Assembly (NCBI GenBank): GCA_905221205.1
Contig: CAJNCG010000003.1
Span: 1-64,000, forward strand
Source: a bacterium
GTDB lineage: Bacteria; Bacillota; Bacilli; Lactobacillales; Streptococcaceae
DNA: 64,000 bases
Direction of reading: 5' to 3'
Part shown: piece by piece, positions 36,550 to 43,054 of the stretch
Layout of the letters: each line of letters opens with the position of its first letter
Position numbering within the stretch: the stretch's first letter is position 1
Made by a program: the position numbers and the translations under genes
Notes under the pieces: model-generated
Seen by the model: only the letters and a program-made list of their open reading frames with translations
The model's database searches: none
What the model was told of the DNA's origin: nothing

Positions 36550-37205
<656 letters not shown>

Positions 37206-37229
37206 TAAAGGAATATTTAGTTATCAATT

Positions 37230-38549: not shown

Positions 38550-38578
38550 TTTATCACTATATTTTTTGGTACTATACT
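38550..38578 (+). promoter_or_regulatory. Putative promoter of the ABC-F leader
   Basis: TTTATC (38550-38555), 17-nt spacer, TATACT (38573-38578), about 38 nt before a short ORF with a strong ribosome site. The -35 is weak. Confidence 0.5.
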
Positions 38579-38615
38579 ATAGGCAAGGATACATGATAGC
38601 AAGGAGGATGCTCAT

Positions 38616-38711
38616 ATGGAAGACAAAGAGTTCATTACTAATGATTACCACTCGGATTTTAGAACTTGGAATTTCCAGTTTTCTGTTGACAAAATTTCCT
38701 TAAAGGTATAG
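38616..38711 (+). CDS. 31-residue ORF in the ABC-F leader
   Basis: ATG at 38616 preceded by AAGGAGG 6 nt upstream, encoding a 31-residue acidic and aromatic peptide (starts MEDKEFITND, ends SVDKISLKV). No signal peptide, Gly-Gly leader or family match is visible. It is followed at 38747 by a minimal ORF (Met-Asn-Asn-stop) that also has a GGAGGTAAGGGAG site. The two could be regulatory leader ORFs for the downstream ABC-F gene, or a relic of a larger gene; expression is unproven. Confidence 0.5.
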   Translation: MEDKEFITNDYHSDFRTWNFQFSVDKISLKV

Positions 38712-38767
38712 GATAAGGGTACAAATACTCGGAGGTAAGGGAGACATGAACAACTAAGTCTATCAAA

Positions 38768-38843
38768 TAAAGAACCTTTATTTAGTAGATCTTGTTTTTG
38801 TCTCTTTTTGTGTGCTCTTTTCATACTAGATTTTCTAGTATCT
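38768..38843 (+). promoter_or_regulatory. Tandem hairpins in the ABC-F leader
   Basis: Two perfect inverted repeats follow the short ORFs: AAATAAAG-AAC-CTTTATTT (about 38767-38785, followed by a T-rich tract) and ATACTAGA-TTT-TCTAGTAT (38823-38841). The first can act as a terminator. The second resembles an operator or a stem. Confidence 0.5.
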
Positions 38844-38848
38844 TATCC

Positions 38849-38936
38849 TCATTGAAAATCAAAAAACTAGAAAGCTAACCATCTGCTCCTCTTGAGTTGG
38901 ATTAGGCAATCCTAAGCTAGTTTGACGAGCTTTTCA
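38849..38936 (+). repeat. Possible degenerate boxA-like fragment
   Basis: cctcattgaaaatcaaaaaa ctagaaagctaacc resembles the start of BOX element boxA (ctcaatgaaaatcaaa...ctaggaagctagcc), but no boxB or boxC follows. If real it is a truncated copy. Confidence 0.4.
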
Positions 38937-38954
38937 ACGGGGATAATAGAGTTT

Positions 38955-39012
38955 TCAATAGTGACTTTTGGCTCTACTAGGTAAAGTAGAGCTTTTTGTT
39001 ATGCACTATTGA
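38955..39012 (+). promoter_or_regulatory. Nested hairpin/terminator directly before the ABC-F gene
   Basis: Outer arms TCAATAGTG (38955-38963) and CACTATTGA (39004-39012) enclose an inner stem GCTCTACT / AGTAGAGC (38971-38978, 38985-38992) followed by TTTTTG. The inner hairpin plus T-run is a factor-independent terminator only about 40 nt before the ABC-F start. It may be conditional. Confidence 0.7.
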
Positions 39013-39033
39013 CATTCTAGAAAGGGCAACAAT

Positions 39034-40560
39034 ATGATAAACATCAATCATCTAACCATCACACAAAACAAAGATTTACGAGACCTTGTATCTGACCTAA
39101 ACATGACCATCCACGACGGGGAAAAGGTAGCTATTATTGGTGAAGAAGGAAATGGCAAATCAACCTTACTTAAAATTTTTATGGGGGAAGCTTTGTCTGA
39201 TTTCACTATCAAGGGAAACATCCAGTCTGACTATCAGTCACTGGCCTACATTCCTCAAAAACTTCCCGAGGACCTGAAAAATAGAACTCTACACGACTAC
39301 TTCTTTTTGGATTCTGCTGATTTAGACTACAGTATTCTTTATCGTTTAGCTGAGGAATTGCATTTCGATAGCAATCGTTTCGCAAGCGACCAAGAAATTT
39401 GCAGTCTATCAGGGGGCGAATCTTTGAAAATTCAGCTCATCCATGAGTTAGCTAAACCATTTGAGATTCTATTTTTAGATGAACCTTCAAATGACCTAGA
39501 CCTTGAGACGGTTGATTGGCTAAAAGGTCAGATTCAAAAGATTAGACAAACTGTTATTTTCATTTCCCATGATGAAGATTTTCTTTCTCAAACGGCAGAC
39601 ACTATTGTCCATTTACGACTGGTCAAGCACCGGAAAGAAGCTGAAACGCTAGTAGAACATTTAGACTATGATCGATACAGTGAGCAGAGAAAGGCTAATT
39701 TGGTCAGACAAAGCCAGCAAGCTGCCAACGACCAGAGAGCCTATGACAAAAGCATGGAAAAACATCGCCGAGTCAAGCAAAATGTAGAAACTGCACTTCG
39801 AGCTACCAAAGACAGTACTGCCGGTCGCCTATTGGCTAAAAAGATGAAAACTGTCCTCTCACAAGAAAAACGCTACGAAAGGGCAGCTCAGTCCATGACC
39901 CAAAAGCCACTTGAAGAGGAACAAATCCAACTTTTCTTTTCAGACATCCAACCATTACCGGCTTCTAAAATCTTAATCCAACTAGAAAAGGAAAATTTGT
40001 CCATTAGCGAGCGAGTTTTAGTTCAGGAGTTACAACTAACTGTCCGTGGCCAAGAAAAAATTGGTATCATCGGACCAAATGGTGTTGGAAAATCAACTCT
40101 GTTAGCCAAGTTGCAACAACTACTAAGCTCCAAAAGAGAGATTTCTCTTGGTGTTATGCCACAAGATTATCACAAAAAACTGCAATTGGAGATATCCCCA
40201 ATAACCTATCTCAGCCAAACTGGGAACAAAGAGGAACTACAAAAAATCCAATCTCACCTAGCCAGGCTCAATTTCAGTTATCCAGAGATGCACCACCAAA
40301 TTCGCTCCTTATCCGGCGGACAACAAGGAAAACTCCTGCTTTTGGATTTAGTGTTGCGCAAACCAAACTTTCTCCTTCTGGATGAACCCACACGAAACTT
40401 TTCTCCAACTTCTCAACCTGAAATCAGAAAACTCTTTACCACTTATCCAGGCGGTCTCGTCACTGTTTCGCATGACAGACGTTTCTTAAAAGAAGTCTGT
40501 ACGACCATCTATCGTTTAACAGAACACGGTTTGGAGGTAGTTAATTTAGAAGATTTATAA
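39034..40560 (+). CDS. ABC-F family ribosome-protection-type ATPase
   Basis: 508 residues with two ABC cassettes and no membrane segments. Walker A1 GEEGNGKST (36-44), signature LSGGESLKIQL, Walker B ILFLDEPSNDLD. A charged alpha-helical linker follows (about 200-290). Then Walker A2 GPNGVGKST (about 347-355), signature LSGGQQGKLLL and Walker B LLLDEPTRNFSP. ABC-F proteins act on the ribosome, and some give antibiotic resistance. The second Walker B lacks the usual N-H-L-D after the catalytic Glu (RNFSP), which is unusual. The GC and leader suggest a regulated accessory-type gene, though it is conserved in pneumococci. Substrate unknown. Confidence 0.9.
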   Translation: MININHLTITQNKDLRDLVSDLNMTIHDGEKVAIIGEEGNGKSTLLKIFMGEALSDFTIKGNIQSDYQSLAYIPQKLPEDLKNRTLHDYFFLDSADLDYSILYRLAEELHFDSNRFASDQEICSLSGGESLKIQLIHELAKPFEILFLDEPSNDLDLETVDWLKGQIQKIRQTVIFISHDEDFLSQTADTIVHLRLVKHRKEAETLVEHLDYDRYSEQRKANLVRQSQQAANDQRAYDKSMEKHRRVKQNVETALRATKDSTAGRLLAKKMKTVLSQEKRYERAAQSMTQKPLEEEQIQLFFSDIQPLPASKILIQLEKENLSISERVLVQELQLTVRGQEKIGIIGPNGVGKSTLLAKLQQLLSSKREISLGVMPQDYHKKLQLEISPITYLSQTGNKEELQKIQSHLARLNFSYPEMHHQIRSLSGGQQGKLLLLDLVLRKPNFLLLDEPTRNFSPTSQPEIRKLFTTYPGGLVTVSHDRRFLKEVCTTIYRLTEHGLEVVNLEDL

Positions 40561-42939: not shown

Positions 42940-43054
42940 AATGTCATCCCGTGAGGTGACGAAGACGAAGAAATATTTGAAACTCTTTAAAGTCTAGATT
43001 TTAAAGAAGTCTTACTCTGAGGGCCTATTGCTGTAAAATAATGGGCTCTTTTTT
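42940..43054 (+). promoter_or_regulatory. PyrR attenuator leader of pyrP
   Basis: The PyrR-binding element TGTCATCCCGTGAGGTGACG (about 42942-42961) shares the CCCGTGAGG loop with the pyr operon leader. The terminator at 43019-43054 has the stem GAGGGCCTATT / AATGGGCTC with a 2-nt bulge and a TTTTTT tail. This puts uracil uptake under the same control as synthesis. Confidence 0.88.

What the first reader, a model, noticed from the sequence alone, without database searches (positions are those of the whole stretch)
38550..39033. ABC-F gene preceded by a small-ORF leader and a terminator: candidate antibiotic- or stress-sensing attenuator
Between a putative promoter (38550-38578) and the ABC-F start (39034) are a 31-codon ORF with a strong ribosome site, a Met-Asn-Asn-stop mini-ORF with its own site, two perfect hairpins, and finally a nested hairpin with a U-run ending about 40 nt before the gene. 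Known ABC-F resistance genes (for example msr(D), vmlR) are often controlled by ribosome stalling and attenuation. This architecture fits that idea but the 31-residue peptide matches nothing I recognise.
Basis: partly seen in the sequence, partly recalled or inferred. Interest (0 to 1): 0.72.

Follow-up and report, generated by a model that had tools for sequence, protein, structure and literature searches.

The report
Three-codon ribosome switch before ABC-F gene
A tiny three-codon reading frame in front of a streptococcal ribosome-protection-like gene appears to act as a drug- or stress-sensing switch that stops transcription twice unless a ribosome stalls on it, and a piece of it has been catalogued until now as a small RNA of unknown function.

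Summary
The window is mitis-group Streptococcus. Transcription most likely starts at 38720/38721, from TTGACA-17-TAGGAT. The likely sensor is the Met-Asn-Asn-stop mini-ORF (38746-38757). It sits in the 5' arm of hairpin T1 (38737-38808), itself a terminator. A second terminator, T2 (38970-38997), precedes the ABC-F gene. The T1 3' arm (38778-38789) is complementary to the T2 5' arm and loop (38973-38984): an anti-antiterminator / antiterminator / terminator switch, like Bacillus vmlR. Across Streptococcus, 188 of 194 ABC-F leaders carry a 3-5-codon mini-ORF (5.6% of shuffles). The antiterminator pairing co-varies as a set (0 of 20000 permutations), though not in every clade. Removing a ribosome footprint flips the predicted fold in 32 of 37 clusters. 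Rfam's 'sRNA' SpF43, and D39 srf-19 ('alternative terminator present'), are on this reading the T1- and T2-terminated leader. Known kind, new variant with two serial terminators. Inducing drugs and resistance function are inferred, not shown.

The parts
38686..38714 (+). conserved promoter of the leader: -35 TTGACA (38686-38691), 17 nt, -10 TAGGAT (38709-38714); transcript start about 38720/38721
   Evidence: Scan (10 of 12); a loose promoter pattern matched in 56 of 56 mitis-group sequences (window plus 55 loci); in 34 of 36 clusters the best -10 ends 30-34 nt before the mini-ORF start (no shuffled control was run). The published F43 5' end and the D39V srf-19 5' end map to this position.
38731..38735 (+). 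Shine-Dalgarno sequence GGAGG of the mini-ORF
   Evidence: GGAGG before the mini-ORF in 60 of 60 RF02436 elements examined.
38746..38757 (+). three-codon uORF ATG AAC AAC TAA (Met-Asn-Asn), the proposed ribosome-stalling sensor
   Evidence: 3-5-codon uORF with SD in 188 of 194 leaders across Streptococcus; 217 of 3880 shuffles and 1 of 194 reverse complements.
38737..38808 (+). hairpin T1: anti-antiterminator enclosing the uORF, and in this clade an intrinsic terminator with a U run 38805-38809
   Evidence: Rfam RF02436 structure; fold; a stem with a T-rich tail by a crude test in 20 of 37 clusters; F43 RNA is listed as Northern-positive.
38721..38819 (+). Rfam SpF43_sRNA (RF02436), read here as the leader RNA terminated at T1
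   Evidence: 116 bits against a gathering score of 70.
38778..38789 (+). antiterminator arm 1 (part of the 3' arm of T1)
   Evidence: 12 pairs with 38973-38984; co-variation.
38973..38984 (+). antiterminator arm 2 (5' arm plus loop of T2)
   Evidence: Pairs with 38778-38789; over 37 clusters native pairing beats permuted pairing, 0 of 20000; the T2 3' arm used as control gives no signal.
38970..38997 (+). terminator T2: 9-bp stem, 6-nt loop, U tract
   Evidence: In the pneumococcal locus L053 the T2 U tract falls at the offset of the published srf-19 3' end.
38835..38955 (+). decayed BOX-like repeat (name recalled) inserted between T1 and T2 (spacer, not part of the switch)
   Evidence: 18-32 matches per genome, many to its first 46 bases only, in 4 of 4 genomes searched; the T1-T2 distance varies by clade.
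39034..40560 (+). ABC-F ATPase (508 aa), the controlled gene
   Evidence: Two ABC domains; the profile of 27 orthologs has 8buu and 6ha8 (VmlR2 and VmlR by recalled names) as its best solved matches; a relative at E <= 1e-60 in 251 of 284 Streptococcus genomes.
38551..38711 (+). NOT part of the switch: promoter-like site and 31-codon ORF (38616-38711), remnant of an upstream 109-codon gene

Best explanation
The 38720-39033 leader is a ribosome-controlled transcription attenuator of the ABC-F gene. Without stress, a ribosome reads the three-codon uORF and leaves. Hairpin T1 then forms and ends transcription, giving SpF43 RNA. Polymerases that pass T1 meet T2, because the T1 3' arm is still held in T1. 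When a ribosome is arrested on the start codon or first codons, its footprint (about 38731-38762) covers the 5' arm of T1. T1 cannot form, its 3' arm is free and captures the 5' arm and loop of T2 (38778-38789 with 38973-38984), T2 is blocked too, and the ABC-F gene is transcribed. The most likely signals are drugs that arrest initiating ribosomes with little sequence context (pleuromutilins, lincosamides, streptogramin A), and the ABC-F would then rescue those ribosomes. Shown here: anatomy, conservation, co-variation and the predicted switch. Shown in print: RNA of this start, with two ends. Inferred: stalling, the drug class and protection.
For: Cis linkage: 163 of 284 Streptococcus genomes have an RF02436 match, 125 over the cut-off. 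Of 90 such loci examined, 89 lie upstream of the same ABC-F; the other ends at a contig edge (60 of 60, at 115-310 nt and 50-92% protein identity; 29 of 30). uORF: 188 of 194 leaders against 5.6% of shuffles; residues vary (MNN, MKN, MRN, MIN, MDK, MYN, also TTG or GTG starts) while the length hardly does. Promoter at a fixed distance: 34 of 36 clusters. Antiterminator co-variation: mean duplex -9.88 against -7.74 kcal/mol permuted, 0 of 20000; still 3 of 5000 with 18 clusters at a 55% identity threshold; the T2 3'-arm control shows nothing. Ribosome mask: mean antiterminator pairs 1.6 to 9.5, up by more than 2 in 32 of 37 clusters; window 0.1 to 13.4, T2 pairs 8.6 to 0.8. Native partners beat swapped ones in 30 of 37. 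Published RNA: F43, Northern; D39V srf-19, 'alternative terminator present'. Best solved matches of the ortholog profile: VmlR2 and VmlR (names recalled); vmlR has an MIN uORF in a like layout.
Against: No expression or drug data were found. The minimum-energy fold of the masked leader through to the ABC-F start still shows T2, so the switch depends on folding during transcription. After T2 is complete, masking weakens T2 by more than 2 pairs in only 15 of 37 clusters. The co-variation is a property of the set: in 10 of 37 clusters the native duplex is no better than the mean with swapped T2 arms, and only 15 of 37 stand out singly from shuffles at p <= 0.05. T1 lacks a U run in the MKN clade L119-L132 and L136, and the crude T1 terminator test passes in only 20 of 37 clusters. 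The window protein scores below every curated ABC-F cut-off listed (298 against 380 bits for the general model), and alone it matches YheS best. In print, DF43 is not among the mutants with a virulence effect.
Confidence: 0.82

Rival explanations
1. SpF43 is a trans-acting small RNA with its own targets, and its position before the ABC-F gene is incidental.
For: It is catalogued as an sRNA (RF02436), listed as Northern-positive, and was among the 81 candidates (as M52) that a 2025 paper drew up after excluding known cis-regulators.
Against: 89 of 90 examined elements precede the same gene, the other being at a contig edge; the strongest constraint is on SD, start and stop of a tiny ORF; the 3' arm co-varies with a terminator further downstream. 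A second role in trans is not excluded.
Confidence: 0.05
2. An attenuator that senses supply of the uORF's amino acids (such as asparagine) by codon stalling, as in amino-acid operons.
For: Two Asn codons in the window; Asn is the last sense codon in most leaders.
Against: Species with MDK, MIH, MKI, MYI and GTG-IK uORFs have no Asn codon; the regulated gene is not biosynthetic.
Confidence: 0.03
3. Same switch, but the physiological signal is general slow initiation, competitor bacteriocins or stringent stress, and the ABC-F is a rescue factor rather than a drug-resistance factor.
For: The ABC-F is near-core (251 of 284 genomes) and below the curated resistance-family cut-offs. vmlR is also induced by defects in translation. 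srf-19 is listed as changing in blood components or CSF.
Against: The best solved matches of the ortholog profile are resistance factors (names recalled) and the leader layout resembles drug-inducible ABC-F genes.
Confidence: 0.3
4. One reading: a 31-residue leader peptide from the 38551 promoter is the sensor.
For: A strong SD and an open frame in the window.
Against: It is the start of a gene that has 109 codons in 28 of 55 loci; its stop codon is inside the conserved -10 box; none of 50 aligned loci has the 31-codon form.
Confidence: 0.02

Closest known systems
Bacillus subtilis vmlR leader (uORF Met-Ile-Asn; PMC9226507, passages read)
   Same: Three-codon uORF within an anti-antiterminator hairpin, an antiterminator, an intrinsic terminator, and an ABC-F gene downstream. 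Several streptococci even carry MIN, MDN or MDK; MIN, MDN and MDK are among the vmlR uORF versions tested in that paper.
   Different: In the window the anti-antiterminator hairpin is itself terminator-like, so two terminators stand in series. vmlR's SD-sequestering hairpin SL-4 was not sought here. Homology of the two leaders was not tested.
Clostridioides difficile cplR, VmlR2 and LsaA uORFs (MR[I/M], MK[L/Q], MAGN; PMC10201436, passages read)
   Same: Very short uORF before an ARE-ABCF gene; that paper suggests they are stalled by drugs with little context-specificity.
   Different: In cplR the terminator sequesters the gene's SD and control is called translational attenuation; here both stops lie before the gene's SD. 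The word 'Streptococcus' was not found in that paper's main text.
Streptococcal msr(D) leader MsrDL (MYLIFM; PMC10314930, passages read)
   Same: Ribosome stalling on a short ORF prevents a terminator before an ABC-F gene in streptococci.
   Different: MsrDL is a six-residue macrolide-specific peptide on mobile DNA; here the ORF is usually three codons, variable in residues, and chromosomal.
Rfam RF02436 SpF43 / pneumococcal F43, Spd_sr63, M52, srf-19
   Same: It is the same RNA.
   Different: In the passages seen it is an sRNA or ncRNA of unknown function, or a '5'-UTR-located sRNA' of SPV_1137 (PMC9812572, passages); here it is read as the terminated leader of a uORF attenuator.
Listeria lmo0919 and hflXr attenuators (PMC6310831, passages read; Dar 2016 not held)
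   Same: Drug-responsive premature termination before a ribosome-rescue gene; the RNA before hflXr also bears a small-RNA name (rli80).
   Different: hflXr uses a 14-codon ORF with an RLR motif.

Membership tests
VmlR-type uORF transcription attenuator | very short SD-preceded uORF in the leader | tested here: met
   Window 38746-38757; 188 of 194 leaders
VmlR-type uORF transcription attenuator | uORF lies in an anti-antiterminator hairpin whose 3' arm forms an antiterminator that competes with the terminator | tested here: met
   By prediction and co-variation; weak in 10 of 37 clusters
VmlR-type uORF transcription attenuator | intrinsic terminator(s) between uORF and gene that are used in vivo | tested here: met
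   T2 in the sequence; published ends of F43 and srf-19 with 'alternative terminator present', mapped through L053 because D39 itself was not in hand
VmlR-type uORF transcription attenuator | start-codon stalling by the cognate drug relieves termination | not testable with these tools
   needs Term-seq, Ribo-seq or a reporter
VmlR-type uORF transcription attenuator | hairpin that sequesters the gene's own SD (vmlR SL-4) | not tested
   not sought
ARE-ABCF (antibiotic-resistance ABC-F) protein | two ABC domains joined by a linker | tested here: met
   Two ABC_tran stretches; two Walker A and two signature motifs at residues 36/125 and 347/426
ARE-ABCF (antibiotic-resistance ABC-F) protein | score over the curated cut-off of a resistance family or of NF000355 | tested here: not met
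   Window 298 bits against 380 for NF000355; Sal, Msr, Vga, CplR, Lsa far below; best ortholog of 27 has E 2.9e-111 for NF000355, its bit score not shown
ARE-ABCF (antibiotic-resistance ABC-F) protein | closest solved relatives are ARE-ABCFs | tested here: inconclusive
   Best three of the 27-ortholog profile: 8buu, 6ha8 and 7p48 (VmlR2, VmlR and Sal(B) by recalled names, the first two listed as ExpZ). With the single window sequence YheS scores best
ARE-ABCF (antibiotic-resistance ABC-F) protein | protects ribosomes from a drug | not testable with these tools
   no MIC data
Rfam RF02436 SpF43 | covariance-model score over the gathering score | tested here: met
   116 against 70 bits
trans-acting sRNA | acts on targets elsewhere independent of the adjacent gene | not testable with these tools
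   conservation points to cis
msr(D)-type macrolide leader | MYLIFM-like or +X+ macrolide-arrest peptide | tested here: not met
   Met-Asn-Asn; none of the peptides tallied carries such a motif

The most novel reading that the evidence does not exclude
Nearly the whole genus Streptococcus, pneumococcus included, carries a normally silent, chromosomal, VmlR-like ribosome-protection factor. It is held off by two serial terminators that one arrested initiating ribosome opens together. The 'small RNA' SpF43/srf-19 is the by-product of that switch in the off state.
Probability: 0.55. Interest if true: 0.75.

Novelty: new variant of a known kind. Interest (0 to 1): 0.63.

Why it matters
It turns an Rfam sRNA family and a pneumococcal ncRNA of unknown function into a concrete regulator with a named gene, a signal class and a mechanism, and predicts an intrinsic, inducible ribosome-rescue system across a genus that includes major pathogens. 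It also warns that deletion or target prediction for 'F43' may mislead if it is a leader. The uORF's residues drift while its length, SD and start-stop spacing stay; this makes a natural experiment on sequence-independent start-codon sensing. Serial terminators governed by one ribosome are directly testable with existing Term-seq and Ribo-seq designs.

Tried and rejected
Rejected: the 31-codon ORF as sensor; asparagine sensing; SpF43 as mainly a trans-acting sRNA. Structure prediction of the ABC-F with a shallow alignment of 13 sequences gave mean pLDDT 54.7, too poor to use, so no fold search was run. The protein-homolog search showed 120 of 6970 hits, all at least 87% identical, and added only that most of those are 519 residues long. 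The masked full-length minimum-energy fold did not show the switch and is reported as evidence against. T1 as a terminator was tested only crudely (20 of 37 clusters).

Rows dropped: 1 of 197 loci had a truncated ABC-F (L247); 2 of 196 leaders were shorter than 480 nt; 25 of 196 leaders had no ATG-started uORF plus detectable T2 in the automatic test, and 1 of the remaining 171 fell out for a short protein, leaving 170 in the 37 clusters. A few automatic picks are doubtful (L208, L222, L196, L176) and were kept as noise. Of the 6 leaders without a uORF, L185 has one at -651 and L221 a 7-codon one; L213, L216, L222 and L244 gave none. The genomes were meant to lack both the RF02436 and the pattern match; 58 of 60 do (G281 has a weak RF02436 match, G284 a pattern match). 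The 60 RF02436 elements were picked by me to span the scores; apart from these and the 30 loci, the remaining matches were not looked at one by one for the downstream gene.

Literature: no passage or listing seen links F43, srf-19 or SP_1282 to uORF attenuation in searches; subscription papers are mostly missing, Dar 2016 is not held, and PMC6560143, which names srf-19 and SPV_2317, was seen only in the listing.

Full report
WHAT THE WINDOW IS. ABC-F relatives 84-92% identical to the window's lie in S. mitis, S. oralis, S. pneumoniae, S. pseudopneumoniae and S. infantis, among others. The window's own assembly is not held; the nearest genome shares 25% of its sampled 31-mers. The locus corresponds to SP1281-SP1282 of TIGR4 (F43 row of PMC3395615, passages read). 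Neighbours are nth, pyrR, pyrB and carA upstream, and htpX- and lemA-like genes, rsmG and a uracil permease downstream (htpX, lemA, pyrB, pyrR and carA named from the translations and memory).

OBSERVATION. The Rfam scan showed that the piece around the mini-ORF is RF02436, SpF43_sRNA, 38721-38819, 116 bits against a cut-off of 70. The leader RNA from 38721 to 39033 folds at -99 kcal/mol against -66.8 +/- 4.7 for 100 shuffles.

THE 31-CODON ORF IS A GENE REMNANT. Of 56 mitis-group loci, 52 have DNA like the stretch upstream of the leader, and in 50 of these the start codon is covered. By start motif, 28 of 55 loci have a 109-codon protein there, one 105, three 50-58, five 17, two 19, one 5, and 15 have none with these start motifs. 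The long form ends ...YGPVFGF in most of those printed; no Pfam family matched the one scanned. In the window most of that gene is missing and the frame runs on for 31 codons into the next promoter: its stop codon 38709-38711 lies in the -10 box TAGGAT.

THE REAL PROMOTER. A loose TTGAC-15 to 18-TA pattern stands directly before the element in 56 of 56 mitis-group sequences, window included (L055 too short, left out). Of 37 protein clusters spanning the genus, 36 gave a uORF; in 34 of 36 the best -10 ends 30-34 nt before the uORF start, and 32 of 36 score at least 9 on the 12-position match plus a spacing bonus (no shuffled control). Published coordinates agree. F43 starts at TIGR4 1216148, the base aligned with 38721. 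D39V srf-19 starts at 1170746 (PMC6212727 Table 2, passages), one base before F43, using the +458 D39W-to-D39V offset of the SPD_1137 row of the same paper.

TWO TERMINATORS, BOTH SEEN IN PRINT. srf-19 is listed as 1170746-1170923, 'ncRNA of unknown function', with the footnote 'Alternative terminator present'. D39 itself was not in hand. In the pneumococcal locus L053 the T2 stem fills the bases up to offset 174 from the start base and the T tract covers offsets 175-177; the srf-19 end is offset 177. The ABC-F ATG of L053 is at offset 214; the D39 codon change H431Q at 1172219 fits residue 420 of the 508-residue frame (H in the window, Q in L053; most listed homologs have 519 residues) and puts the D39 ATG at offset 214 as well. 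So srf-19's listed end is most likely T2, and its alternative end and F43's end T1. F43 is present once, with preserved synteny, in 385 pneumococcal genomes (Table 1 of PMC12323649, passages). That 2025 paper lists it as M52 among candidate sRNAs drawn up after excluding cis-regulators. PMC9812572 (passages) lists Srf-19 as a 5'-UTR-located sRNA of SPV_1137. So its place in the 5' UTR was known; the switch is not described in any passage I saw.

THE uORF IS CONSERVED ACROSS THE GENUS, ITS PEPTIDE IS NOT. RF02436 matches 163 of 284 Streptococcus genomes at E <= 0.001, 125 over the cut-off. I examined 90 of these loci. Sixty, picked to span the scores, all have SD plus a three-codon ORF and all precede the ABC-F by 115-310 nt. 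Of the 30 best-scoring, 29 precede it with the uORF between, and one ends at a contig edge. The pattern GGAGGTA-N2-8-ATG-AAN-AAY-TAA hits 150 of 284 Streptococcus genomes, backward control 0 of 284; a few hits (for example a second one in G172 and in G243) look like chance. In 395 genomes of the order it hits 51, in 1 of 80 genera, backward control 2 of 395. A relative of the ABC-F at E <= 1e-60 is in 251 of 284 genomes. I then took 60 genomes with the ABC-F, 58 of them without either match. Among all 194 leaders of at least 480 nt, 188 have an SD-preceded 3-5-codon ORF at least 90 nt before the gene; 217 of 3880 shuffled leaders (5.6%) and 1 of 194 reverse complements do. The tally with ATG is MNN 125, MKN 22, five-codon forms (DNNK, DSNK and the like) 13, MRN 4, MIN 3, and rarer MIH, MDK, MYN, MYI, MKI, MNK, MDN; TTG starts 8 and GTG starts 4. 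The peptide drifts while SD, start, shortness and stop stay; this argues for sensing at initiation or the first peptide bonds rather than for a peptide-specific arrest (inference). The leader keeps its place although the upstream neighbour differs: a GlnQ-like ATPase lies upstream in 16 of 36 clusters and was not found in the other 20 (by a short motif in about 1-1.5 kb).

THE ANTITERMINATOR. T1's 3' arm 38778-38789 (UUAUUUAGUAGA) pairs over 12 positions with 38973-38984 (UCUACUAGGUAA), the 5' arm and loop of T2. Related pairs change together: in the MKN clade (L119) UUUAUUUAGUAGA with UCUGCUAAAUAAA, in others ACCAGUAGG with CCUACUGG (L118, L187), GAUAGA with UCUAUC (L114), GAUUGGUUGG with CUACCCAAUC (L230). 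Test: in 37 clusters (80% protein identity) the native duplex averages -9.88 kcal/mol; 20000 permutations average -7.74 (sd 0.34) and none reaches it. With 31, 19 and 18 clusters (70, 60, 55%) 0, 0 and 3 of 5000 permutations reach it; by longest helix 0, 0, 6 and 15 of 5000 at the four thresholds; the same duplex test with T2's 3' arm shows nothing (2900, 3370, 2440 and 1793 of 5000). It is a property of the set: in 10 of 37 clusters the native duplex is no better than the mean with swapped T2 arms, and 15 of 37 stand out singly from shuffles at p <= 0.05.

THE PREDICTED SWITCH. I computed pairing probabilities at the moment the T2 loop has been made, with the free RNA and with everything up to 16 nt from the uORF start removed, as a stalled ribosome would cover it. 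Mean expected antiterminator pairs rise from 1.6 to 9.5; 32 of 37 clusters rise by more than 2 and one falls by more than 2. For the window 0.1 becomes 13.4, and after T2 is complete T2 pairs fall from 8.6 to 0.8; three further mitis-group leaders checked (L053 of S. pneumoniae, L038, L057) behave alike. In the masked fold native partners pair more than swapped ones in 30 of 37. Against: with T2 complete, T2 weakens by more than 2 pairs in only 15 of 37 clusters, and the minimum-energy fold of the masked leader through to the ABC-F start keeps T2. The model therefore needs co-transcriptional folding, as attenuators usually do (general knowledge).

MECHANISM. Off: ribosome leaves the uORF, T1 forms and terminates; read-through polymerases terminate at T2 because the antiterminator arm is held in T1. 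On: an arrested ribosome covers T1's 5' arm, so T1 fails and its freed 3' arm disarms T2. The window's T1-T2 spacer holds a decayed BOX-like repeat (18-32 matches per genome); the arms survive such insertions.

THE GENE. Two ABC domains. The profile of 27 orthologs finds as best solved chains 8buu (236.6 bits), 6ha8 (226.7) and 7p48 (217.9), then ABCF1, YheS, PoxtA and Uup. The first two are VmlR2 and VmlR and the third Sal(B) by recalled identity; the file names the first two ExpZ. With the single window sequence YheS ranks first. NCBIfam's general ribosomal-protection model gives 298 bits against a cut-off of 380, and no named resistance family is reached. It is thus ARE-like, not a member of a named resistance family, and protection is unproven.

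COMPARISON. The closest published system is vmlR: a Met-Ile-Asn uORF in an anti-antiterminator, with induction relying on arrest at initiation by lincomycin and pleuromutilins (PMC9226507, passages). uORFs of CplR, VmlR2 and LsaA are of the same sort (PMC10201436, passages). MsrDL is a different, macrolide-specific hexapeptide (PMC10314930, passages). What differs here is a hairpin that is anti-antiterminator and terminator at once, the genus-wide spread in a near-core gene, and a history as an 'sRNA'.

VERDICT. The attenuator is well supported (0.82; lowered by 0.01 on recounting the clusters without a signal of their own). The drug class (initiation-arresting drugs of the peptidyl transferase centre) is likely but untested, and true resistance is about even.

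Noticed in passing
window 42941-43035: Rfam SpF44_sRNA directly before the uracil permease; passages of PMC12323649 and PMC6212727 identify it as a PyrR-binding leader, so a second 'sRNA' of this window is a cis-regulator.
   Followed up: partly
window 37083-37215 (-): PyrR binding site (RF00515, 62 bits) upstream of the pyrR-like gene on the minus strand.
   Followed up: no
window 38616-38711: Truncated start of a 109-codon gene with no Pfam match, full-length in 28 of 55 mitis-group loci and reduced to 5-19 codons in 8 others: a recurrently lost small gene beside the leader.
   Followed up: partly
window 38835-38955: Decayed BOX-like repeat between the two terminators; other lineages have a shorter spacer or a longer BOX-like insert (L144).
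   Followed up: partly
window 39001-39036: Listed homologs mostly have 519 residues, from an ATG 11 codons upstream; in the window that ATG runs into a stop (ATG CAC TAT TGA), so the 508-residue start is likelier.
   Followed up: yes
L185 and L204, upstream of the ABC-F start: A 48-codon basic ORF (MKNLNQLKKQIKQ...) lies between the attenuator and the ABC-F in L185, and a like frame is seen at the same place in L204; possibly co-regulated.
   Followed up: no
L200, L207, L212, L236, L240, L242, L243 leaders: The uORF keeps its length but starts with TTG (others GTG: L202, L214, L238), which would tune initiation rate on the sensor.
   Followed up: partly
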